Of a stretch of DNA of 24,124 bases, positions 6,131 through 21,369 are shown one piece after another. Made by a program: the position numbers and the translations under genes. Origin of the DNA: a virus; the IMG/VR virus record IMGVR_UViG_3300022929_000201, positions 1 to 24,124 of that record; one strand, written 5' to 3'. The stretch's first letter is position 1. Every line of letters starts with the position of its first letter. Below the pieces are notes generated by a model. That model made no database searches and had not been told where the DNA came from. It worked only from the letters and a program-made list of their open reading frames with translations.

Positions 6131-7058
6131 TATATGTTCCTAGTATATCTGTTATTCTATCTTCCCCAATATCTAAAATATACTGGAGATATTCTGCAAG
6201 CTCTTCAGATACAGTAAGGTCTTTATCCATAATCAAAGTAGCTTCCGAATTACGTTTTACTACTTTCTTATCGAGTAACTCACTGTTCTTTACAGAAGCA
6301 AGCTCCTGAATATCACCTTCTACTTCGTAGATTGTATGGTGAAAATGCGTAGGAACCATGTCACTAGTATCTCTTACCGTTTTACGGATAAGCTGAGGTA
6401 ACTCAAACCTTTCCCACAACCAAGACCAGTCTTGCTCATTGATAAGGATATACCCTGTATTTACTTCTGTTCTGTGAAAAGAAGTAGTCATTGGGCTGCC
6501 TGGATATACTATATTACGTTGACAATTACTATGTGAGTGCAAATCTCCTGAGAATACTACAGGAAAGTCCTCGAACCTGTCTAAGTCCACCTCTGGCTTG
6601 ACGTGTGGAGGTATTTCACCACGCACATGAGTAAATAATGGTCTTTTAGTATTAAACTGCTCAATGCTGTCTGGTCTATGTAAGTCAGCATATGGCAGTA
6701 TTCCAAAACCTAAATCTTCATCTATGTATGCAATATCTACTATATTCACTAGAGGATTTATATCCCTAGATACTTGCTTTAACTGGGTAAAAAAGGTTTT
6801 ATGTTTCTTAGTAGCCTCGTGATTACCGTCATAAATAATAGTAGGTATCTTTACTTTACGAATAAACTTAAAGTATAGTTCTAACTCTTCCATATTCGGA
6901 AGACGATCAAAGAGATCGCCTCCGATTATGTGCATATTACAGTCGGCTTCTAGGGCATGGATCTGGTCAAAGAATAGGTTATACCTATTCAGTGCCCATT
7001 TAACTGGGACATTCTTCTGTCCCAGTTTGATATGCCAGTCGGCTGTAAATAGAATCAT
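6099..7058 (-). CDS. sbcD: SbcD/Mre11-like nuclease (T5 D12-like)
   Basis: The 319-aa protein is a calcineurin-type metallophosphoesterase, the nuclease partner of the SbcC-like ATPase. The metal-binding motifs are in order: D7 and H9 (TADWH), D48 (GGDLFD), N79 and H80 (DGNHE), H144 (FTHVRGE), and H174 and H176 (GDLHSHSNC). The C-terminal 120 residues carry no recognisable motif and probably form the SbcC-binding part. The ATG overlaps the stop of the ssDNA-binding protein gene by 4 nt (ATGA), and the end overlaps the SbcC-like gene by 32 nt, so stoichiometric translation is likely. Assignment is secure. Confidence 0.94.
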   Translation of the reverse strand: MILFTADWHIKLGQKNVPVKWALNRYNLFFDQIHALEADCNMHIIGGDLFDRLPNMEELELYFKFIRKVKIPTIIYDGNHEATKKHKTFFTQLKQVSRDINPLVNIVDIAYIDEDLGFGILPYADLHRPDSIEQFNTKRPLFTHVRGEIPPHVKPEVDLDRFEDFPVVFSGDLHSHSNCQRNIVYPGSPMTTSFHRTEVNTGYILINEQDWSWLWERFELPQLIRKTVRDTSDMVPTHFHHTIYEVEGDIQELASVKNSELLDKKVVKRNSEATLIMDKDLTVSEELAEYLQYILDIGEDRITDILGTYNDYTSKIEME

Positions 7059-7681
7059 GATATATCGAACTCAGCTTCTAAAGACTCGTCAATTTCTTCT
7101 GAGCCAGCTTCACGAATCTCGTCAAGCAAAGTTTTCTGAGCATCTGGAGTAGGACGTGGCATTACATCATCCATAGATTTTAAACCATCTACAAGAGCTT
7201 TCTCGTCTGCATCTAGTTCACGATGCTTACACTTCAATACCTGTAATTGATACTCTACATTATATGCTAGTGGGCCAGTCTTTACTCGCTTGAATTTAAC
7301 ATCCCAACCTGATACTGGATCAGTAGGGTCGCCAAGGTCTTCAGCAGCAGTCATGATCTGCTCAAAGAGTTTCTTCTTCAAGTTAATTACTTTGACTTCG
7401 CCGTTGTCAATGCACTGCATTGCGTAGCTCCAGCCACATTTCAGATCGGGGTAGAATTCACGAACCCAATCTTTTTCTTTGTTATTAAAACGCTCTTCGT
7501 TTCGATCAAAAGACAGACACTCGAAAGGAATGTTCTTGCCATTCTTACCTTCGATCCAATATACATAGCGAGCTAGTATATCACCTACGAGGCGGACAGA
7601 GTTGTCACCATCGCGGTAGCCGAAAGAAGAGATAGAAGATTTTTGGGCAGAGCCCTTAGATTTGTTGAATGATAGTGCCAT
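7055..7681 (-). CDS. gp32-like single-stranded DNA-binding protein
   Basis: The 208-aa protein looks like the T4 gp32-type ssDNA-binding proteins of many phages. It has a basic, serine-rich N-terminus (ALSFNKSKGSAQKSS), an OB-fold-sized core with many aromatic and basic residues (RYVYWIEGKNGK, DWVREFYPDLKCGWSY), and a strongly acidic tail (EEIDESLEAEFDIS). Such tails recruit other replication proteins. The gp32 zinc site is not clearly present. Position fits: it lies ahead of the recombination nucleases and about 410 nt downstream of a strong promoter, as expected for a protein needed in quantity. The gene ends in an ATGA overlap with sbcD. Function is inferred from overall shape and context rather than from a diagnostic motif. 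Confidence 0.75.
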   Translation of the reverse strand: MALSFNKSKGSAQKSSISSFGYRDGDNSVRLVGDILARYVYWIEGKNGKNIPFECLSFDRNEERFNNKEKDWVREFYPDLKCGWSYAMQCIDNGEVKVINLKKKLFEQIMTAAEDLGDPTDPVSGWDVKFKRVKTGPLAYNVEYQLQVLKCKHRELDADEKALVDGLKSMDDVMPRPTPDAQKTLLDEIREAGSEEIDESLEAEFDIS

Positions 7682-7683
7682 TT

Positions 7684-8088
7684 TTAATGCCTCGTTGTTT
7701 TGTCGTTGACTTCTTCATATAGAAAATGTAATTTACCATCTTCTGCGTGTAGTAGTCTATTATCATAGTAAAGTTCATGACTTACGGGAACTTCCAATAA
7801 GTCTACAGTTGTTGTGCCATAGGCAAGGTAGTCAGCAAGACTTCTTATCGAAGCGAGAGCAAGGTACTGACAAATCTCTCTTGAGTCATACTTATACGCA
7901 TTGAACAAAAGAACATCTGGGTGAACCAAGAATGACTCACCTGTAAAGTCTTTGTCTGCGTACTTGTATATTTTATCATAACGATTGTTTGGTATTTGGC
8001 GTTCTACAAGCATTTTGAATATTCTTCGTACCTCAGTAACCGAACCATTCGCCTCGTTATATATCTTATTCCAATTAAATAAGAACAT
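7684..8088 (-). CDS. Conserved phage protein of unknown function, 134 aa
   Basis: The product contains stretches I recognise from hypothetical proteins of tailed phages and cyanophages: FNWNKIYNEANGS, IPNNRYDKIYKYAD, SFLVHPDVLLFNAYKY and YLALASIRSLADYLAYG. No enzyme motif is visible and the protein looks soluble and helical. It sits directly before the ssDNA-binding protein gene (2 nt apart), so a replication link is possible. The start is odd. The ATG at 8088 lies 2 nt after the -10 box of the promoter at 8091, so transcripts from that promoter should begin just inside the ATG. There is also no clear ribosome-binding site. Full-length product would then need read-through RNA from the cupin gene. 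An internal start at M26 is possible but would remove conserved residues. Confidence 0.75.
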   Translation of the reverse strand: MFLFNWNKIYNEANGSVTEVRRIFKMLVERQIPNNRYDKIYKYADKDFTGESFLVHPDVLLFNAYKYDSREICQYLALASIRSLADYLAYGTTTVDLLEVPVSHELYYDNRLLHAEDGKLHFLYEEVNDKTTRH

Positions 8089-8090
8089 CT

Positions 8091-8130
8091 ATTATACCAG
8101 AGTAGTGAGCAAAAGTCAAGAACTATTTTT
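8091..8130 (-). promoter_or_regulatory. Sigma70 promoter for the SSB-SbcCD-NrdAB unit
   Basis: On the minus strand the -35 TTGACT is at 8119-8114 and the -10 TATAAT at 8096-8091, with a 17-bp spacer. It is preceded by the shared A/T-rich block AAAAATAGTTC. Transcription should start near 8084. The TGA stop of the cupin gene lies inside the -35 hexamer (8118-8116). Confidence 0.85.
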
Positions 8131-8895
8131 TTGAAAGTCATAATACTTTCTATCAATAGGTATTTCTTTATTCGACCTTGCTAGTGGGACAGATATGGAA
8201 ACTCGTGCACTGGCTGGTGATGCTTTATGAAACATCCCTGCAGGTATATACAATAAGTCCCCTGTTGTTAGTACAGTATCAACTATAGTCTCGTACTTAG
8301 CCTCCTGTTCAGGTGGCATTGTCATTCTACTAGTAAACCGCTTTTTGCCGTCTTCACCGACTTCGCTTCTGGCAAATACATTGTATACTTTCCAGTGTAC
8401 TTCTCCAATAGCATGAACAAGATAGTTATCGTCTGCATCTGCATGGCACTCAAAAGATACTGCATTTTCGCTCGGAGAGCAATAGAAGTGTGCATCTGCA
8501 GAAGAGTTCTGGTATCTATCTTCCAGGGCTTTGCCAATGGCTGAAATATTGGGACTAAACATGGAGGCTTTGGTAAGTATCATACTTCCACCTTTTTTCC
8601 ATATGTCGTAAACGTACTCTTTTTCATAGTAGTCTTTTTTAGACCATGAGCTTTTCTGTCCACGATAAAGGTTTCCCTTTTCCATACACAATTTTTTGCC
8701 GTCTGGAGTAATCATCTGCAACCCCGCTACGGCTCTATCATTGCTAACATACTTTGAAATATCGTCCCAAGAACAGATATTACTAAAGAAGTATCTTTTA
8801 TACGCATCGGCACGAATAACGATTGGTTTCTTTCCTAGAATAGTTTCTTGGAACACATGGTCTGTGATCGGATGTATTAAGTCTTCGAATATCAT
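8116..8895 (-). CDS. JmjC/cupin-type 2-oxoglutarate Fe(II) oxygenase
   Basis: The 259-aa protein has the layout of JmjC-domain hydroxylases (cupin_4/YcfD and ROX relatives). The N-terminus matches the usual entry of the fold (HVFQETILGKKPIVIRAD). The iron-binding triad HxD...H can be placed at H151 and D153 (ECHADADDN) and H223 (IPAGMFHKASP), followed by the final strand VSISVPLA. Family members hydroxylate protein or RNA-linked residues with 2-oxoglutarate and O2; the substrate here is unknown. The gene overlaps the UvsW-like helicase by 4 nt (ATGA), so it belongs to the replication operon. Its last codons are encoded by the promoter at 8091, giving the tail KNSS. Fold assignment is good; target is open. 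Confidence 0.75.
   Translation of the reverse strand: MIFEDLIHPITDHVFQETILGKKPIVIRADAYKRYFFSNICSWDDISKYVSNDRAVAGLQMITPDGKKLCMEKGNLYRGQKSSWSKKDYYEKEYVYDIWKKGGSMILTKASMFSPNISAIGKALEDRYQNSSADAHFYCSPSENAVSFECHADADDNYLVHAIGEVHWKVYNVFARSEVGEDGKKRFTSRMTMPPEQEAKYETIVDTVLTTGDLLYIPAGMFHKASPASARVSISVPLARSNKEIPIDRKYYDFQKNSS
8720..8729 (-). repeat. YAGCGGGGTY motif, copy 3 (candidate T5-type nick site)
   Basis: On the minus strand the bases read TAGCGGGGTT, preceded by CCG. It is read as GTA GCG GGG TTG (V-A-G-L) within the cupin gene. Confidence 0.5.
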
Positions 8896-10175
8896 ATCTG
8901 TTTTATTTTATACCCCATTTTTATATAGTGCCCCATACGAGCTGACGCTTGTTTAGTGGCAGTATTTCCTTTTAAATGTATATCAATTACTACTGGGTCA
9001 CGTTTTCCATCCATCTTTCGGATAACTCGCCCAATAAGCTGTGTGAGTAATGGCTCATTATTTATAGGTGTTCCTAGAATGAGACAACTAAGTGTATTTA
9101 CTGATATACCTTCACTGAAGATTGCTTGAGTTCCGTAAAGCACATTCTTGTCCCCATACAAGATCTCATCAATCAACGCTTCTCTTTGCTCATGTGGTAC
9201 CTCACCTGTAACACAAATCGCTTTGTCACCAGTCAGCACGGCGCAGCTCTTTAAGAAGTGAACTCGATCGCTAACTACGAGGACTTTATGACCTCGTGCC
9301 GCATATGCAGCTGCTAGCATAGCTACGCTGTGCCTGTACTCCTCGTTATTCGTTAAATGGTTAACACGTTTTGCCCAAGGAACACTAGCCCCGTCCATAA
9401 ATCGAATATCTGATCTAAATATCTCGATAGTCGGGGTCATAGCATTTTCTTTTGGCGGTTTAAAGACGTTATTACCAAAGTAATCTCTAAAAACAACGTG
9501 TTTTCCATCTTTTCGTTCAATAGTACCAGATAAGCCAATTTTATATCTACAGTAGTTGGTGTCAAGTACTTTAGAAAATGTAGGGCTTGAGACGTGGTGC
9601 ATCTCATCCAGAATTACTGTACCAAACATTTTCTTTATCTTATCAATGTTTCGGTAAAGAGTTTGAGTATTGCCTATAACTATAGGACTATCAGTATCGA
9701 ATGAACCACTACCAATTATGCCAGCTTCTATGCCGAATACTTTCTTTACTTCTTTAGCCCATTGATTTCTCAAAGCAATTGTATGTGTTACTACTAGCGT
9801 TTTCTGCCCTAGCTTTGCTGCGATTGCCAACCCCGTGAAGGTTTTACCCCAGCTAACCCAGGCATTGATAATTGCATTGTCATCTAACGCATCGTAAACT
9901 TCTCTTTGGCTATCTCGTAGCTCAAACTTAAACGTAGGAAACTCTACAGGTATAGTAATGCGTCTGTCTACTACCTCGTATCCTTTAGGTATAAGATCAG
10001 TGCGCCCTACAGGTATAGTCACGAGATTTTCTCGTACTCGTGACATATTTTTAATGACCTGCGGAGGATCATTTGGGTTACTAGAAGGTATAGTATAAGT
10101 AAGAGCCTTACTAAGCTCCTCTTTATACTCTGGGGTTACTTCTAAATATATCCTATTACTAATAACTGCTTTCAT
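8892..10175 (-). CDS. UvsW-like superfamily 2 DNA helicase (T5 D10-like)
   Basis: The 427-aa helicase has the superfamily 2 motifs in order: a Q-like motif LRDSQ (86-90), Walker A AWVSWGKT (105-112, with W where glycine is usual), DEMHH as motif II (190-194), SGT as motif III (216-218) and QLIGRVIR as motif VI (379-386). T4 UvsW and T5 D10 relatives unwind branched DNA such as R-loops, stalled forks and Holliday junctions. About 85 N-terminal residues precede the helicase core, as in UvsW. The ATG overlaps the PhoH stop (TAATG) and the gene ends in an ATGA overlap with the cupin gene. Assignment is secure; activity on branched DNA follows from the family. Confidence 0.92.
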   Translation of the reverse strand: MKAVISNRIYLEVTPEYKEELSKALTYTIPSSNPNDPPQVIKNMSRVRENLVTIPVGRTDLIPKGYEVVDRRITIPVEFPTFKFELRDSQREVYDALDDNAIINAWVSWGKTFTGLAIAAKLGQKTLVVTHTIALRNQWAKEVKKVFGIEAGIIGSGSFDTDSPIVIGNTQTLYRNIDKIKKMFGTVILDEMHHVSSPTFSKVLDTNYCRYKIGLSGTIERKDGKHVVFRDYFGNNVFKPPKENAMTPTIEIFRSDIRFMDGASVPWAKRVNHLTNNEEYRHSVAMLAAAYAARGHKVLVVSDRVHFLKSCAVLTGDKAICVTGEVPHEQREALIDEILYGDKNVLYGTQAIFSEGISVNTLSCLILGTPINNEPLLTQLIGRVIRKMDGKRDPVVIDIHLKGNTATKQASARMGHYIKMGYKIKQI

Positions 10176-10841: not shown

Positions 10842-11336
10842 TTATACTTTTCTTCTAGTATCTTTGAGCTTCGTTTCCGAATATTCAAAGAGCATCCACG
10901 GAAGTCCGTGGTAGTGGAGGACGGCTGCCCACTTCATTCCTTCGAGTGGAGGCCTCGGTACGATAAAAGGCTTTCTAACGCCTTCTAATCGCAATACACA
11001 AGCAACTTCTTTTAAAATCACTTCTGTAATTTTTATATACTTTAACTTACACATCAAGGTCTTTTCATAAATAAATAAACGACCTTCACTGTCTATAAAA
11101 GTATTTGTTCTTTGTTTTAATATACCGTTTAGATCAACTAAGGCTTTTCTTAATTTTAGCAGCTCCCTATGAGGGGTTTGCATTCTTCGAATACCTAAAG
11201 TTTCCCCTGGCATATTTTTGTCGTCTATAAGCTGTTCATCTACAAATACTAATCCATCTGCCTGTAGCCAATTAGCGGAAGGCACTACGAATACAGGGAA
11301 CTTAATGCTCTTGATAGACCGGTATGAGATCACCAC
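10842..11336 (-). CDS. Conserved phage protein of unknown function, 164 aa
   Basis: The product has conserved-looking blocks: SYRSIKSIKFPVFVVPSANW, FVDEQLIDDKNMPGETLGIR, FIYEKTLMCKLKYIKI, FIVPRPPLEGMKWAAVL and a basic end KDTRRKV. I recall similar hypothetical proteins in T4-like cyanophages. No catalytic motif is evident; the sequence suggests a compact beta-rich protein. The start is GTG at 11336, with AAAGGAG 7 nt before it; a second GTG follows at once. The gene starts inside the end of the radical SAM gene (35-nt overlap) and ends 1 nt before phoH. Its place between a radical SAM enzyme and PhoH raises the possibility that it is a partner or substrate of either, which is speculation. Confidence 0.75.
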   Translation of the reverse strand: MVISYRSIKSIKFPVFVVPSANWLQADGLVFVDEQLIDDKNMPGETLGIRRMQTPHRELLKLRKALVDLNGILKQRTNTFIDSEGRLFIYEKTLMCKLKYIKITEVILKEVACVLRLEGVRKPFIVPRPPLEGMKWAAVLHYHGLPWMLFEYSETKLKDTRRKV

Positions 11337-12240
11337 CGCGTAGCTCCTTTATATATTCTAATCCTTCTTCACCTGCTATTTTAGCAACGTGCTGCCTATA
11401 GAAAGGAGTTTTTCTAAACTTTTCAATAGTGTTCATAGTATCTTTTCGGCCACCTTGACCATCATCACAACTGGCACAAGGAAGTATATCTCTACGTCTA
11501 TTATTTATCAAAGACCAACGTATTCTATTTAATTTAGGGTCATTCACATACATATCCATTAAGCTACGTTCGTGAATATTGCCTATCTTAATTTGGTACT
11601 TCCAGTCGTTGCAACACATCTGGTAGTTACCCTTGTAGTCAATAAATATTTGTCGCATAGGATGCCAACAAGGACTATCTAAGACTTTATCAGAGAACCA
11701 GCCTGCTCTATTGTTAAAAGCATATCTAAACTGTTTACCTTCGTTCTTAACATCATTCTGGTTTCCCAGCTTATTTATTTCATCAACAGATAGACCATCT
11801 GGCTTAAAGTACTGATCTACAATAGTACCATTAGCAAGGCTTCTGTATTGAACTAGCCTTTCCTCAAAGTCTTCTCTGTTAGTATATGTGTTAAGTATAA
11901 GCTCATCAATTTTAGTATACGCTCTTGACCAGTGCTTTTTAATACGATAACCATTTGTAGTTACTCGTACTTTCCACTTACGTGGTTCCTGAGTTAGTAA
12001 GTCTATAACTTTCTCAAACTTAGGGTGTGTAGTAGGCTCGCCTCTCCCCGCTAACTCGATAAAGCCTTTAAAATCTATACTTCGTAGTTCTTCCAGAACT
12101 GTTTCTATAGTTTTAAAAGACATGATCTCATTTACATTAGGGTAGGTAGGGTTAGACCTAGGACAGAAACTACACGTTTTATTGCATAGTCCTGTCAGGT
12201 CAAGGTCAATCCTATAAATGTATTTAGTAAGTTGATCCAT
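11302..12240 (-). CDS. Radical SAM enzyme with SPASM-like C-terminal cluster
   Basis: The 312-aa protein has the radical SAM CxxxCxxC motif at C19, C23 and C26 (GLCNKTCSFCPRS), the GGEP-like motif GRGEPTTH (65-72), and a barrel-sized middle. Near the C-terminus, C191, C209, C210, C255 and C258 form a SPASM-like set for an auxiliary Fe-S cluster (CWHPMRQ, YQMCCND, LPCASCDDG). SPASM enzymes usually modify peptides or proteins. The substrate here is unknown and no obvious short precursor peptide was found next to it. ATG 12240 lies inside the end of the polymerase gene (17-nt overlap) and is preferred over an open frame to 12342 that would overlap the polymerase further. Fold is secure; role is open. 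Confidence 0.85.
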   Translation of the reverse strand: MDQLTKYIYRIDLDLTGLCNKTCSFCPRSNPTYPNVNEIMSFKTIETVLEELRSIDFKGFIELAGRGEPTTHPKFEKVIDLLTQEPRKWKVRVTTNGYRIKKHWSRAYTKIDELILNTYTNREDFEERLVQYRSLANGTIVDQYFKPDGLSVDEINKLGNQNDVKNEGKQFRYAFNNRAGWFSDKVLDSPCWHPMRQIFIDYKGNYQMCCNDWKYQIKIGNIHERSLMDMYVNDPKLNRIRWSLINNRRRDILPCASCDDGQGGRKDTMNTIEKFRKTPFYRQHVAKIAGEEGLEYIKELRGGDLIPVYQEH

Positions 12241-14497
12241 ATAATTTTTCAAATTTGCCCATTGAATAGTCATCACCAATATCGAAGTCACAACCAACCG
12301 GAGCACCTGGGATATAAATACCCCTGTCCTTTTGTACCGCATCCAATAGAATAGCAGTATAGTCCTCTATTTCACCTTCTGGCACTTCTGCTAGAATGGA
12401 GTCGTGTACAAGGGCAAATATGCGTGCCTTCATACCTTTTGCTTTTATCATTAGCTCTGCGTCTATAGCGCCTAGGAGGTTAATATCAGATGCAGCAGAC
12501 TGCACCAGAAAATTAAGACCAGACCTAATGCTATGAGATTTGATGCCTTGATCTTCAGATCCAACATTTGGTAATCTCCGCTTTCTACCGAAGTAGCTGT
12601 AAATAAACCCATTTTGTTCGATGAATTTATGGTTATCGTTTATCCACTCGCGTAGCTTATGGAAAGTTTTAAAGTAATCATCGATTACCTCTTTTGCTTC
12701 TTGTGGACTAAAGTACTTGCCCGAATCTTTTGTAACCTGTTCACTAATCTTCTTTGGGCCAGCTCCATACATAATACCGAAGGTTACAGCCTTTGCAGCC
12801 TGTCGGCGATCTGGATAGAGTTCTGCTACGTCTTCCACGGCACAAGGAAGGCTGAACACTTTGTGAGCAATAGTACTGTGGAAGTTTCCGCCTGAACGAA
12901 ACACATCCATCAATGCTTTATCTTTTGCTAGAACTGCTGCAACATATACTTCTGCTGTTGTTAAGTCCATTGCGACAATCTTGTGTCCAGGGGCAGCTTT
13001 AATACAGCCTTTAACAGTAGGATTATCTCGTGGAAGCTGTTGCATATTCAACTTACCACTTGAACTTAAACGACCAGATGTAGTACTATGCAGATTAAAG
13101 CCTGTACGCAAACGACTATCTCGGTCAAGCTGTGGAATAATCTTATCAAGATAAGTATTCTTTATCTTAGACTTCTGACGAATAGAAAGAATAAGGGCTG
13201 GAACCTCTGATTGCTCCGCCAGCTCATTCAATACTTCTGCATCTGTAGAGTCTGCACCAGTACCGGTTTTCTTACCTGTAGGGCGTAAACCTAAAAAGTC
13301 AAACATTAACTTTCGTAGTTGTACTGTAGAGTTAGGGTTGAACTCCTTGCCCTGTATCTCTTCAAACTTACGGATAGCGGGATTCTCGTATAAAGATGCC
13401 ACTGCCGTATCAATGTCCTTTTGCATCTCCTCTTGAGAGAATTCTAGGCGTTTGCGATCAAAGGGTACCCCGTTGTCTTGAATGTCAGTAAGAAAACGAC
13501 AGCCTGGAATAAGAATATTCTCATACACCCAGTTTAGCTTTTTGTTCTGTTTGATCTTACTAAATTTCTCGTAGAGAATAAACGTACAAAGTGCGTCCAT
13601 CCCCGCATAGGTTTTCATAATATCAAAAGGAATATCACCCCAGTTGAATTGACTTTTTAGAATGCCGTTAGCTTTCTTATATGAGTCGATCCAGTCGTAC
13701 ATTGGCTTTTCATAGTCGCCGTAAGGAGTGAACTTCATAGTAAGCTGCTTCAATCCATGAGTACCTGGGTTCTCATCAATAAGATAATGAAGAAGCATTG
13801 TATCTTCGAAGACTGGAAACTTAAAGTTAAAGTGGTACTCAAAGAACGCCATATCGAACTTAGCGTTGTGGAATACTACAGTCTTTTTGTTAAACAACTC
13901 TTGAAGCAGTTCTTCTGTAGTCTCGTCAAAACACTCTGTATCAATATATGCGCCCTTCTGATCACAATACGCTAGTGAAATACCGAGCATATGACCGTCA
14001 CGAGGATAAAGACCAGTTGTTTCGGAGTCAAGTGCGATATAAGGAAGCGGAGCATCAATAGCTGCTTGAATATACGCATTAGCTTCTTCAGTATCTTGAA
14101 TACCGAAAGAGATAGAGGAATCAATTATTACATCTTTGACTTCGCCAGCAATATGTGCAATAACACTTTCTTTACTAGAGTCCCATACTTTCTGTACTTC
14201 AGGCTTAAAGCGAAGCATAGCAGGGTTGATAATTGGAAGGAACTTACCCTCCACTTTCTTACCAGAGTATTCTGTAACAGAATTGATTTTGGTAAAGTAC
14301 TTGAGAGCATCCGATCCTACTAGTATCACCCAGTCGTAATCATCTGTGTCAAGTTGAATGTCACAGTCTCTCTTTAATACTTTCTTTAGGGTAGGGTCAG
14401 AACACAGTTGGAACTGATCGAAAGAAAAAGCGTCGTCAAACGCCTGTTTAAAATTGGTATTGCTTGGCTTCGTTTCTACTAATGCAACTTTAGGCAT
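12224..14497 (-). CDS. Family A DNA polymerase with 3'-5' proofreading exonuclease
   Basis: The 757-aa replicative polymerase resembles T5 D9. The exonuclease has D157 and E159 (ALDSETTG), D215 (HNAKFD) and Y297 with D301 (YAGMD). Polymerase motif A is AMDLTTAEV (D511, E516), unlike the usual DYSQIELR. Motif B is RRQAAKAVTFGIMYG, with K569, F573 and Y577. Motif C is VHDS (D699), where HDE is usual in cellular enzymes. Residues 54-100 (DWVILVGSDALKYF to INPAMLRFKPE) look like a uracil-DNA-glycosylase-type fold without an obvious active site. The ATG has a GAGGAA ribosome-binding site, lies inside the end of the upstream nuclease-like gene (19-nt overlap), and the gene overlaps the radical SAM gene. 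Assignment is secure. Confidence 0.96.
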   Translation of the reverse strand: MPKVALVETKPSNTNFKQAFDDAFSFDQFQLCSDPTLKKVLKRDCDIQLDTDDYDWVILVGSDALKYFTKINSVTEYSGKKVEGKFLPIINPAMLRFKPEVQKVWDSSKESVIAHIAGEVKDVIIDSSISFGIQDTEEANAYIQAAIDAPLPYIALDSETTGLYPRDGHMLGISLAYCDQKGAYIDTECFDETTEELLQELFNKKTVVFHNAKFDMAFFEYHFNFKFPVFEDTMLLHYLIDENPGTHGLKQLTMKFTPYGDYEKPMYDWIDSYKKANGILKSQFNWGDIPFDIMKTYAGMDALCTFILYEKFSKIKQNKKLNWVYENILIPGCRFLTDIQDNGVPFDRKRLEFSQEEMQKDIDTAVASLYENPAIRKFEEIQGKEFNPNSTVQLRKLMFDFLGLRPTGKKTGTGADSTDAEVLNELAEQSEVPALILSIRQKSKIKNTYLDKIIPQLDRDSRLRTGFNLHSTTSGRLSSSGKLNMQQLPRDNPTVKGCIKAAPGHKIVAMDLTTAEVYVAAVLAKDKALMDVFRSGGNFHSTIAHKVFSLPCAVEDVAELYPDRRQAAKAVTFGIMYGAGPKKISEQVTKDSGKYFSPQEAKEVIDDYFKTFHKLREWINDNHKFIEQNGFIYSYFGRKRRLPNVGSEDQGIKSHSIRSGLNFLVQSAASDINLLGAIDAELMIKAKGMKARIFALVHDSILAEVPEGEIEDYTAILLDAVQKDRGIYIPGAPVGCDFDIGDDYSMGKFEKLYGSTY

Positions 14498-18311: not shown

Positions 18312-19091
18312 TTATATAACTCCGTTATTTGTTAGTTGGCCTAGGTTATCAACTACTGTGATACCTTTTGACCTTGCTTGGTTAGTTTTTGCCGATTCAA
18401 TTCCTGACTCATTTAATAGATGAGTGCAGTCTTTAGTAAGAGTACTTTTTACAATCCATCCATAGTGCTCTAAGTATTTAGTAGCTTCTGCTTTTGATGG
18501 AAAACTCTTTAGTTTTCCAGTAATACAGACTACTCCTACAGGATCTATAGTGACTGTAATAGTATCTTTTGACTTCTCAGTGAATTTAAAATCAAAAGGC
18601 AGTTGTGTATCATATACTCCTAGGAAGTCCCAGTGATACCAGTCCATTAGGGATTCCGTAGCTTTTAGGCCAAGACCGGCATCTGCACACTTATCTTCGC
18701 TCAGTTCAAATATATTAGTGATTACTGAAGATAGCTTGTTTGCTGCTGTTTTGCCTATTAGCGGAATACTGAACGCTGGTAGTACCATCTCAAGAGGGGC
18801 ACTCTCAGAGTTCTTAATCTCAGCAAATAGCTTTGCTGCAATCTTTGGAGAGGAAAGACACTCTGCAATCTGATCTTCAGCAAGACAATATATCTCACGA
18901 ATATCAGATAGACCTAGCTTCTCAATGGAGCTTGGCCCAAGACCCTTAATTTTAAGAGTCTTTGCAAAGTGCTCTACTTTTTTCTGCATCTGTGCGGTAC
19001 AGGACGCAGACACACAGTACAGAAGGTGATTCCGCCAAGTAAGTTCCGCACTGCAACTAGGGCAATGTGTAGGAGCTTGGATCGGTATCAT
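18312..19091 (-). CDS. NAD+-dependent DNA ligase, C-terminal subunit (Zn finger, HhH, BRCT)
   Basis: The 259-aa protein corresponds to the C-terminal third of bacterial LigA. A four-cysteine zinc finger is formed by C10, C13, C26 and C31 (HCPSC, YCVSASC). Helix-hairpin-helix segments follow (KIKGLGPSSIEKLG, FSIPLIGKTAANKL, AGLGLKATESL), then a BRCT domain (about 185-255, VCITGKLKSFPSKAEATKYL). The adenylation domain is absent and is encoded by the neighbouring gene, so the two products must work together, as in T5, where the NAD+ ligase is also encoded by two genes. ATG 19091 has AGAGGA upstream and its own promoter at 19121. This is not a frameshifted single gene: a promoter and about 80 nt separate the parts. 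Confidence 0.9.
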   Translation of the reverse strand: MIPIQAPTHCPSCSAELTWRNHLLYCVSASCTAQMQKKVEHFAKTLKIKGLGPSSIEKLGLSDIREIYCLAEDQIAECLSSPKIAAKLFAEIKNSESAPLEMVLPAFSIPLIGKTAANKLSSVITNIFELSEDKCADAGLGLKATESLMDWYHWDFLGVYDTQLPFDFKFTEKSKDTITVTIDPVGVVCITGKLKSFPSKAEATKYLEHYGWIVKSTLTKDCTHLLNESGIESAKTNQARSKGITVVDNLGQLTNNGVI

Positions 19092-19172: not shown

Positions 19173-20093
19173 CTATTCGGCTACACGTCTCAAAATTCGA
19201 GGTATAATTTCCCCAGATCTAATAACTTCCACCATACACCCAATCTCCAGATTGAGCTCTTGGATATACTCTATGTTGTGCAGGGTTGCCTTTCTTACGT
19301 TAGCGTCTCCAATGAGCACAGGCTCTAGGATTGCTACAGGGCTAACCACACCAGATTTGCCTGTCTGCCACACAACATCGAGTAACTTTGTTACTACACC
19401 ATTCTTCTGCTCTTTGAAAGCAAAAGCACCACGAGGATGATGTGCAGTAAATCCGAGTTGCTTGAAAGTCTTATACGAATCTACACGATAGACAATGCCA
19501 TCTGTAGGATATTCACTAGCATCAAACTTATTAACTGTACTGAAGCCTTGAACGCTTAAAGCCCTCATTGCTTCGCTCCATGTATCATAGTCTCCGCCTT
19601 GAATATCATAGGCCACAAAAGTCAGGTCTCGAGCATGAAACTCGTCCATACACTTTAGGTTTAGTGACCCCGCTGCGACATTTCGAGCATTTACAACACG
19701 AGATGGGCAAACTACCTCACCTGTAATCTGGATACTGCCTCGATAGAGGATTTCCTCAGGTACTAGGTACTGCATCTTTTCAGTGATGTCTCTTCCGACA
19801 TTACCATCACCTCGTGTTAAAGCTAGTGCCAATAATCCATTTACATAGACTAAAGACACTGCTGCACCATCAAGTTTGGGAGTCTGCACGTATTCGTCTA
19901 GTGCCGGGGCACTATTCATATCAAAGACTTTTTTGAGCGAGTACATTGGGTACAGATGTGGAATGCCGTCAGTAATCTTATGGCCTACCTCATTGTATCC
20001 GTACTTTGCAGCTAACTCATCGAACTCGATATCCGAGATAATCGGAGTACCTTCGTAGTATGCGTTACTTGCGTTGTCTAAAAAGTCTTTCAT
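19173..20093 (-). CDS. ligA: NAD+-dependent DNA ligase, N-terminal adenylation subunit
   Basis: The 306-aa protein carries domain Ia (NASNAYYEGTPIISDIEFDE, typical of NMN binding), the nucleotidyltransferase motif TPKLDG with K73 as the AMP-accepting lysine (numbered from ATG 20093), ALTRGDGNVGRDIT as the next conserved motif, and an OB-fold start (WQTGKSGVVSPVAILEPVLI, ATLHN, RSGEIIPRI). It ends before the zinc finger, which lies in the next gene. The frame opens at a GTG at 20105, only 7 nt after the predicted RNA start. ATG 20093, with GTGGGA upstream, is preferred. Copy 5 of the YAGCGGGGTY motif is inside. Function is secure as half of a two-gene ligase. Confidence 0.92.
   Translation of the reverse strand: MKDFLDNASNAYYEGTPIISDIEFDELAAKYGYNEVGHKITDGIPHLYPMYSLKKVFDMNSAPALDEYVQTPKLDGAAVSLVYVNGLLALALTRGDGNVGRDITEKMQYLVPEEILYRGSIQITGEVVCPSRVVNARNVAAGSLNLKCMDEFHARDLTFVAYDIQGGDYDTWSEAMRALSVQGFSTVNKFDASEYPTDGIVYRVDSYKTFKQLGFTAHHPRGAFAFKEQKNGVVTKLLDVVWQTGKSGVVSPVAILEPVLIGDANVRKATLHNIEYIQELNLEIGCMVEVIRSGEIIPRILRRVAE
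19666..19675 (-). repeat. YAGCGGGGTY motif, copy 5 (candidate T5-type nick site)
   Basis: On the minus strand the bases read CAGCGGGGTC, preceded by TCG. It is read as GCA GCG GGG TCA (A-A-G-S) within the ligase adenylation gene. Confidence 0.5.
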
Positions 20094-20118
20094 GCGTATT
20101 CCCACTTAATGAATGTAT

Positions 20119-20158
20119 ATTATACCGACAAATGAAACTAAAGTCAAGAACTATTTTT
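20119..20158 (-). promoter_or_regulatory. Sigma70 promoter for the ligase adenylation subunit
   Basis: On the minus strand the -35 TTGACT is at 20147-20142 and the -10 TATAAT at 20124-20119, with a 17-bp spacer. The upstream AAAAATAGTTC contains the TAG stop of the PC4-like gene (20153-20151). Predicted start near 20112. Confidence 0.9.
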
Positions 20159-21328: not shown

Positions 21329-21369
21329 ATTATAACAATATATACCAAAGAAAGTCAAGAATTATTTTT
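21329..21369 (-). promoter_or_regulatory. Sigma70 promoter for the HTH / 86-aa / PC4-like unit
   Basis: On the minus strand the -35 TTGACT is at 21358-21353 and the -10 TATAAT at 21334-21329. The spacer is 18 bp, one longer than in the other copies. The upstream block is AAAAATAATTC. The TGA stop of the methyltransferase gene lies inside the -35 hexamer (21357-21355). Confidence 0.85.

What the first reader, a model, noticed from the sequence alone, without database searches (positions are those of the whole stretch)
8116..8895. JmjC-type oxygenase in a phage replication operon
The HxD...H iron triad (H151, D153, H223) in a cupin_4/YcfD-like frame is translationally coupled to the UvsW-like helicase. 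Known relatives hydroxylate ribosomal proteins or other proteins. A phage copy may modify a host ribosome or phage replication protein, or act on a modified base. I know of no defined target.
Basis: partly seen in the sequence, partly recalled or inferred. Interest (0 to 1): 0.55.

Follow-up and report, generated by a model that had tools for sequence, protein, structure and literature searches.

The report
JmjC oxygenase cargo in T5-like phage
A T5-like phage carries, as optional cargo between two replication genes, an iron-dependent oxygenase of the JmjC kind whose predicted grip on its helper molecule differs from that of its cellular relatives; what it modifies is unknown.

Summary
A 259-aa ORF on the minus strand (8116-8895) has the H151/D153/H223 triad and matches Pfam JmjC_2 at E 2.7e-15. 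Its model matches NO66, MINA53 and YcfD (Z 18-21). The triad is kept in the homologs compared: H151 and D153 in 78 of 78, H223 in 77 of 77 aligned there.

The gene looks like optional cargo, not part of replication: in T5-like contigs the same slot between helicase and SSB module is empty in 15, holds this gene in 3 distinct genomes, a glycosyltransferase-like gene in 3 and another ORF in 1. A near-consensus promoter overlaps its stop codon.

It is not a ribosomal oxygenase by architecture: it is too short for the dimerization and winged-helix domains. It lacks the beta-IV Lys/Arg that holds 2-oxoglutarate in JmjC enzymes (0 of 78; 9 of 9 aligned cellular relatives have it) but has an invariant Arg-x-Ser on beta-VIII (77 of 77; 1 of 8 cellular), the motif described for most non-JmjC 2OG oxygenases (PMC2453528). 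I read it as an Fe(II)/2OG hydroxylase with a moved cosubstrate anchor; the substrate is unknown.

The parts
8116..8895 (-). JmjC_2 oxygenase gene, 259 aa
8443..8445 (-). codon of H151, first iron ligand
   Evidence: H in 78 of 78 phage-type proteins; coordinates by arithmetic
8437..8439 (-). codon of D153, second iron ligand
   Evidence: D in 78 of 78
8227..8229 (-). codon of H223, third iron ligand
   Evidence: H in 77 of 77 aligned there; the 78th, Syn30, was split by the aligner and has it
8398..8400 (-). codon of V166, at the place of the 2OG-binding Lys/Arg of JmjC enzymes (beta-IV)
   Evidence: alignment to NO66 and YcfD; T/V/I/C in 78 of 78 phage-type proteins, K/R in 9 of 9 aligned cellular ones
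8203..8205 (-). codon of R231, start of beta-VIII, proposed 2OG anchor (R of the RXS motif)
   Evidence: 77 of 77 aligned; strand 231-240 in the model
8197..8199 (-). codon of S233, S of the RXS motif
   Evidence: 77 of 77 aligned
8892..8895 (-). ATGA overlap of helicase stop and JmjC start (left edge of the cargo slot)
8091..8119 (-). sigma-70-type promoter-like site TTGACT-17-TATAAT overlapping the JmjC stop codon (right edge of the cargo slot)
   Evidence: 11 of 12 consensus bases; 12 of 12 in L007 and L108; activity not tested
8892..10175 (-). T5 D10-type helicase, upstream neighbour
7684..8088 (-). phrog_4258 protein, unknown function, first gene after the promoter-like site
7055..7681 (-). 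single-strand DNA-binding protein (phrog_1607)

Best explanation
The gene is accessory cargo (a moron) of a T5-like phage. It sits in an optional slot between the D10-type helicase and the promoter of the SSB/SbcDC module, and is inferred to be made with the helicase as the last gene of that transcript. The product is a single-domain JmjC_2-fold Fe(II)/2-oxoglutarate oxygenase: H151, D153 and H223 hold iron. The far carboxylate of 2OG is most likely held by R231 (with S233) on strand beta-VIII, not by the beta-IV lysine/arginine of known JmjC enzymes. It then hydroxylates a side chain, most likely in a host or phage protein or peptide, giving an advantage that only some phages of the lineage need. 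Shown here: ORF, triad, fold match, conservation, residue swap, slot variability. Inferred: catalysis, 2OG use, R231 as anchor, co-transcription, protein substrate.
For: Fold and family: PF08007 E 2.7e-15; 56 of 56 aligned proteins match PF08007 at E 0.01 or better; model pLDDT 79.3, pTM 0.79; Z 21.3 to NO66 4cco (rmsd 3.5, 230 aligned), 20.4 to YcfD 4lit (3.0, 206), 16.8 to YxbC 1vrb, 14.5 to JMJD5. Triad conservation: including 8 proteins found only through a promoter pattern. Residue swap: Lys on beta-IV in JmjC enzymes and RXS on beta-VIII in most other solved 2OG oxygenases (passages of PMC2453528; PMC9712658; PMC5862935); phage proteins 0 of 78 basic at 166 and 77 of 77 R231/S233; cellular 9 of 9 basic at 166 and Arg at 231 in 1 of 8; two more cellular ones, L120 and L125, have Arg and Lys 15 residues after the first His by spacing alone. 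Cargo: slot states; the gene in the slot of L108 is unrelated yet has the same ATGA start junction and the same AAAAATAGTTC-TTGAC right edge. Selection: pN 0.087, pS 0.716 between window and L007.
Against: No activity data exist. R231 as 2OG anchor rests on sequence and strand position; side-chain geometry was not inspected. N157, which by spacing matches the JMJD5 pocket residue N327, is kept, so part of the canonical pocket remains. Of the 62 proteins first counted, 61 came through searches with conserved-peptide patterns, and those could themselves favour H151, D153 and T166; the 8 promoter-found and the tblastn-found rows do not share this bias. The cellular control is small, and is made of matches that the phage profile could align; one cellular protein (L117) has both the Lys and RXS. 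All slots taken have the promoter motif by selection. The consensus promoter scan of the region was barely above shuffles (21 sites against 15.7, sd 3.6), though sites with at most one mismatch are 8 on the gene strand and 0 on the other. Protein as substrate is a prior from characterised relatives, not a result.
Confidence: 0.6

Rival explanations
1. Hydroxylate-then-glycosylate pair: the oxygenase makes a hydroxyl that a phage glycosyltransferase decorates, on a protein, surface sugar or base, for host-surface change, protection or takeover.
For: In 8 second-location loci (3 of them, L109, L169 and L179, with a T5-like ligase on the same record) a GT8-like gene lies directly upstream of the JmjC gene in 6 of 8 and within two genes in 8 of 8, one of these a 76-aa piece at a contig end; 7 of 7 of its members scanned match Pfam GT8, best 9.7e-12, with an invariant DxD. 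In the helicase slot a glycosyltransferase-like gene (phrog_1574) stands in place of JmjC in 3 contigs.
Against: No glycosyltransferase among the 30 window ORFs compared with PHROGs; the rest of the genome is missing. In sister record L110 the place where the second-location cluster lies in relatives (upstream of the phrog_624 gene) shows no GT8-like, 2OG oxygenase or second JmjC match over the 2.4 kb held. The first GT8-like member is just under Pfam's cut-off. Among the 10 commonest neighbour families of the mostly cyanophage loci no glycosyltransferase was recognised, but 6 of the 10 had no Pfam match.
Confidence: 0.17
2. Ribosomal oxygenase: a phage copy of YcfD/NO66 that hydroxylates a host ribosomal protein.
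For: NO66, MINA53 and YcfD are the nearest solved structures.
Against: 259 aa is JmjC core only; ROX enzymes have JmjC, dimerization and winged-helix domains (PMC6006756, passages). The basic beta-IV residue of YcfD and NO66 is T, V, I or C here. The phage rows form one side of a branch from the 4 cellular rows (support 91/91, long branches).
Confidence: 0.12
3. Nucleic-acid oxygenase acting on a modified base of phage DNA or on tRNA.
For: JmjC-type TYW5 acts on tRNA (PMC4543633, passage) and is a weaker structural match (Z 13.2). The helicase neighbour, and QueC-like and carbamoyltransferase genes in relative G004, would fit a DNA-modifying phage.
Against: No hydroxymethyl-base or deazaguanine synthesis gene was recognised among the window proteins scanned; that ThyX only makes dTMP is recalled. 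The gene is absent from most slots seen while replication genes stay.
Confidence: 0.1
4. Not a 2OG oxygenase: a metal-binding cupin that lost 2OG use when it lost the beta-IV lysine (pseudo-enzyme or binding protein), or an enzyme that mainly alters host 2OG levels.
For: The canonical 2OG anchor is missing in all 78 proteins. Changing host 2OG levels was proposed for cyanophage oxygenases in general (PMC3037559, passage).
Against: The triad stays invariant together with R231-x-S233, and a substitute anchor of known type is present.
Confidence: 0.1

Closest known systems
NO66/RIOX1, MINA53/RIOX2 and E. coli YcfD/RoxA (ribosomal oxygenases)
   Same: JmjC_2 core fold and HxD...H iron triad
   Different: no room for dimerization and winged-helix domains; no basic beta-IV residue; invariant RXS on beta-VIII; 16-18% identity in the structural alignments to these three
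Phage 'JmjC domain-containing proteins' of T4-like cyanophages (phrog_8014)
   Same: same subfamily: triad, N157, RXS, no basic beta-IV residue; 22-29% identity in 27 records
   Different: other phage lineage; in most of the 10 records opened the gene lies among 2OG-Fe(II) oxygenases, often with tryptophan halogenase; by name none of the 27 records is T5-like
B. subtilis YxbC (1vrb, 7zcc), called putative asparaginyl hydroxylase
   Same: JmjC_2-type core (Z 16.8)
   Different: only distant sequence similarity (E 0.0022); its 2OG residues were not compared here
RXS-type 2OG oxygenases (PHD, plant and beta-lactam type; names recalled, motif from PMC2453528)
   Same: Arg-x-Ser after the distal His, here at +8 and +10, on beta-VIII
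   Different: sequence and fold rank far below JmjC/ROX; spacing in those enzymes is recalled, not measured here

Membership tests
Pfam JmjC_2 (PF08007) | score over the curated cut-off | tested here: met
   56.4 bits against 22
Fe(II)/2OG oxygenase | HxD...H triad, conserved in homologs | tested here: met
   78 of 78, 78 of 78 and 77 of 77 aligned
Fe(II)/2OG oxygenase | 2OG-dependent turnover | not testable with these tools
   needs protein
JmjC subfamily as described for FIH, KDM4A, JMJD5, JMJD6, YcfD | Lys/Arg on beta-IV binding the 2OG C5 carboxylate | tested here: not met
   V166; 0 of 78 phage-type proteins basic, 9 of 9 aligned cellular ones basic (passages of PMC9712658, PMC5862935, PMC2453528)
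Ribosomal oxygenases (ROX) | JmjC plus dimerization plus winged-helix domains | tested here: not met
   whole protein is 259 aa, near the size of the JmjC domain alone (236-242 aa in Riox1)
Ribosomal oxygenases (ROX) | hydroxylates a ribosomal protein | not testable with these tools
   needs mass spectrometry
RXS-type 2OG binding | Arg-x-Ser on beta-VIII after the distal His | tested here: met
   R231, S233 in 77 of 77 aligned rows; strand 231-240 in the model
RXS-type 2OG binding | Arg side chain contacts 2OG C5 carboxylate | not testable with these tools
   model coordinates and ligand not available
T5-like phages (Demerecviridae kind) | T5-type genes in T5-like order: split NAD ligase, D5-like regulator, DnaB, primase, pol A, D10-type helicase, SSB, SbcD, SbcC, RusA, flap nuclease | tested here: met
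   for the genes; order compared with pVp-1 and misterkot
T5-like phages (Demerecviridae kind) | family-level taxonomy of the whole genome | not testable with these tools
   only a 24-kb fragment; no near nucleotide match in the phage collection

The most novel reading that the evidence does not exclude
Phages hold a distinct clade of JmjC-fold oxygenases in which the 2OG anchor has moved from a beta-IV lysine to a beta-VIII Arg-x-Ser, as in prolyl-hydroxylase/IPNS-type enzymes. In T5-like phages this enzyme works with a GT8-type glycosyltransferase to hydroxylate and then glycosylate a host or phage target.
Probability: 0.12. Interest if true: 0.75.

Novelty: new variant of a known kind. Interest (0 to 1): 0.45.

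Why it matters
If R231 is the anchor, the phage clade breaks the feature that separates JmjC enzymes from most other 2OG oxygenases, and would be a natural experiment on how the cosubstrate site moves within one fold. The slot comparison (empty, JmjC, glycosyltransferase-like) gives a way to look for hosts or conditions in which the gene pays. No paper on a phage JmjC protein turned up in the searches made of an open-licence library (44 and 92 were broader), although such proteins are annotated as JmjC in databases.

Tried and rejected
Replication role from position: rejected, the slot is variable. A recombination scar at the right edge: weakened, because the shared AATAGTTC-TTGAC stretch is a promoter context found at three other promoter-like sites of the window (a variant at a fourth) and in at least 120 IMG/VR stretches. 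Close isolates: no near nucleotide match. Cellular source of the gene: the one scan of genome contigs gave 2 relatives among 24 stretches, both on contigs of metagenome-assembled genomes, with proteins that score as phage-type members, one with the same match coordinates and contig length as an IMG/VR contig (L056), so likely phage contigs; no donor found. NCBIfam gave nothing for the protein. Rfam and tRNA scans of the window were empty. The gene after the helicase in pVp-1 did not match the window's phrog_4258 protein, so pVp-1 is not in the slot table. R249 looked invariant at first but not in another alignment and was dropped as an anchor. The tree's placing of the window copy against the second-location copies is unsure (open forks, long branches).

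Full report
WHAT IS THERE. The ORF lies on the minus strand at 8116-8895, 259 aa. Pfam JmjC_2 matches residues 127-241 at E 2.7e-15 and PHROG 8014, unknown function, at 6.5e-38. In the PDB by sequence the best are NO66 chains (E 2.8e-6), and with a 56-row profile NO66 4.5e-16, MINA53 1e-13, YxbC 1.5e-10, YcfD 2.2e-7.

THE GENOME. The window is a 24-kb virus record with T5-type genes: ThyX, NAD ligase split in two genes, D5-like regulator, DnaB, primase, pol A, helicase, SSB, SbcD, SbcC, RusA, exonuclease and ribonucleotide reductase, in an order like that of pVp-1 and misterkot. Pol A and helicase are nearest to Demerecviridae phages of Aeromonas and Vibrio, 44.1% and 45.8%. No phage record matches at the nucleotide level. 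All 27 phage records with a JmjC match are named Synechococcus phage or cyanophage.

STRUCTURE. AlphaFold2 from 56 sequences gave pLDDT 79.3 and pTM 0.79; most ten-residue blocks of the barrel are at 90 or more, while residues 1-20, 31-40, 71-90 and 181-190 are below 65. The best structural match is NO66 (Z 21.3, rmsd 3.5, 230 aligned), then MINA53 20.9, YcfD 20.4, YxbC 16.8, JMJD5 14.5, TYW5 13.2. BFVD gives phage JmjC proteins among the first.

RESIDUES. Pattern-based scans gave loci with 62 distinct proteins including the window's; 8 more came from an unrelated promoter scan and 8 from annotated phage records: 78 in all. H151, D153, N157 and W168 are kept in 78 of 78; H223, R231, S233 and S235 in 77 of 77, the remaining row (Syn30) having been split by the aligner and having all four. 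Residue 166 is T 64, V 7, I 6, C 1. It aligns with the Lys of NO66 and the Arg of E. coli YcfD. In papers this beta-IV residue binds the 2OG C5 carboxylate: K214 FIH, K206 KDM4A, K336 JMJD5 (PMC9712658, passages), R148 predicted in R. marinus YcfD (PMC5862935, passage), K204 modelled in JMJD6; the JMJD6 paper adds that most other structurally solved 2OG oxygenases have instead an Arg in an RXS motif on beta-VIII, absent in JMJD6 (PMC2453528, passage). The phage proteins have that motif: R231-x-S233 at the start of strand 231-240. Cellular control: a search of 149 genomes of one phylum gave 17 JmjC_2 matches; the 8 that the phage profile aligned over the triad, plus YcfD, have K/R at 166 in 9 of 9 and Arg at 231 in 1 of 8. 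That one (L117) also has the Lys. L120 and L125 have Arg and Lys at the same spacing but were not aligned there. L115 is phage-type; L121 and L126-L130 were not compared. One cellular row (L122) has Ala in place of the triad Asp. The YcfD residue opposite R231 is Met or Ala depending on gap placement, not Arg.

THE SLOT. The helicase stop and the next gene's start overlap in ATGA in the window, in L007 and, for an unrelated gene, in L108. A promoter-like site TTGACT-17-TATAAT overlaps the JmjC stop; it is a perfect consensus in L007 and L108. A looser scan of the region found 21 promoter-like sites against 15.7 (sd 3.6) in shuffles; with at most one mismatch there are 8 sites on the gene strand of the window and 0 on the other. 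L108 is a T5-like relative (pol 66%); its slot gene is a 305-aa protein matching phrog_1574 and weakly a glycosyltransferase PHROG. Of the fetched loci holding both the helicase and the phrog_4258 gene, 15 have only 43-84 nt between the two alignments, 1 (L220) has 518 nt with a 160-aa ORF, 3 distinct ones have JmjC (window with identical copies, L007, L191), 3 have the glycosyltransferase-like gene (L108, L149, L189), and the isolate misterkot has 206 nt and no annotated gene there. L150 and L186 have the same slot sequence, so the 15 are not all independent. Most of this set is conditional on the promoter motif. L191's JmjC is 52% identical to the window's.

ELSEWHERE. In eight other loci, L109, L169, L179, L183, L185, L235, L250 and L229, the JmjC gene sits in another cluster: a GT8-like gene directly upstream in 6 of 8 and within two genes in 8 of 8, a small conserved gene that reads like a membrane protein directly downstream in 7 of 8 (alignments; membrane nature judged by eye). 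All 7 GT8-like members scanned match Pfam GT8, best 9.7e-12. A 2OG-Fe(II) oxygenase PHROG and DUF6445 are near in L022/L109. That cluster lies upstream of a phrog_624 gene, whose end is at the right edge of the window. In sister record L110 the 2.4 kb upstream of that gene has no GT8-like, 2OG-oxygenase or second JmjC match, against a fixed pairing. In the pattern-found set of 82 loci, 35 clusters at 90% identity, 33 of 35 have a relative of a PF13759 2OG oxygenase and 31 of 35 of a tryptophan halogenase nearby.

HOW IT LIKELY WORKS. Shown: gene, triad, fold match, residue swap, optional slot. Inferred: the protein binds Fe(II) by the triad and 2OG by R231/S233, and hydroxylates a side chain. 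Protein substrates are favoured only because characterised relatives hydroxylate proteins (passages of PMC4543633, and PMC6006756). The GT8 neighbourhood makes a hydroxylate-then-glycosylate module a specific, testable idea.

LITERATURE. Searches for JmjC with cyanophage and JmjC with 'phage genome' found 0 papers; JmjC with bacteriophage and oxygenase listed 1 paper, on cereal metagenomics. Papers on cyanophage 2OG oxygenases exist (PMC3037559, PMC9964418, PMC9602691; [quoted passage not shown] Subscription papers and preprints were not searched.

VERDICT. A real, conserved, probably active oxygenase, carried as optional cargo; a new variant of a known kind. Interest 0.45, mainly for the moved cosubstrate anchor.

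Noticed in passing
window 11302-12342 (-) and 10842-11336 (-): Radical SAM/SPASM gene next to a phrog_4386 gene between polymerase and PhoH; a 34% and a 43% homolog lie between polymerase and helicase in relative L108. Only 7 phage records match the radical SAM protein, 6 of them Campylobacter phages. The longest rSAM ORF overlaps the polymerase by 119 nt, so its true start is probably internal.
   Followed up: partly
window promoter-like sites at 20147, 19149, 16153 and 8119 (-), variant at 21358: Shared promoter context AATAGTTC-TTGAC...TATAAT, also in at least 120 IMG/VR stretches, many with T5-like genes: a possible lineage-wide promoter signature.
   Followed up: partly
L108 2918-9769 and 17380-19481: Relative G004 has, between polymerase and helicase and near the ligase, QueC-like, asparagine-synthase-like, cytidylyltransferase, sulfotransferase-like and Nol-like carbamoyltransferase genes: perhaps a sugar or base modification set.
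   Followed up: no
cyanophage loci, e.g. L012, L014, L068: Clusters of several 2OG-Fe(II) oxygenases, a JmjC protein and often a tryptophan halogenase; a conserved 178-aa protein with no Pfam match lies in 29 of 35 locus clusters and could be a target.
   Followed up: no
L112, L113: Phage-type JmjC genes on contigs filed under a Rhodopirellula and a Euryarchaeota metagenome-assembled genome, probably phage contigs.
   Followed up: partly
window 18312-19091 and 19173-20105 (-): NAD-dependent DNA ligase split into two genes, as in T5-like phages.
   Followed up: no
L122 859-1986 (+): A cellular JmjC_2-type protein with Ala in place of the triad Asp, a pattern recalled from halogenases; the alignment there has a gap.
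   Followed up: no
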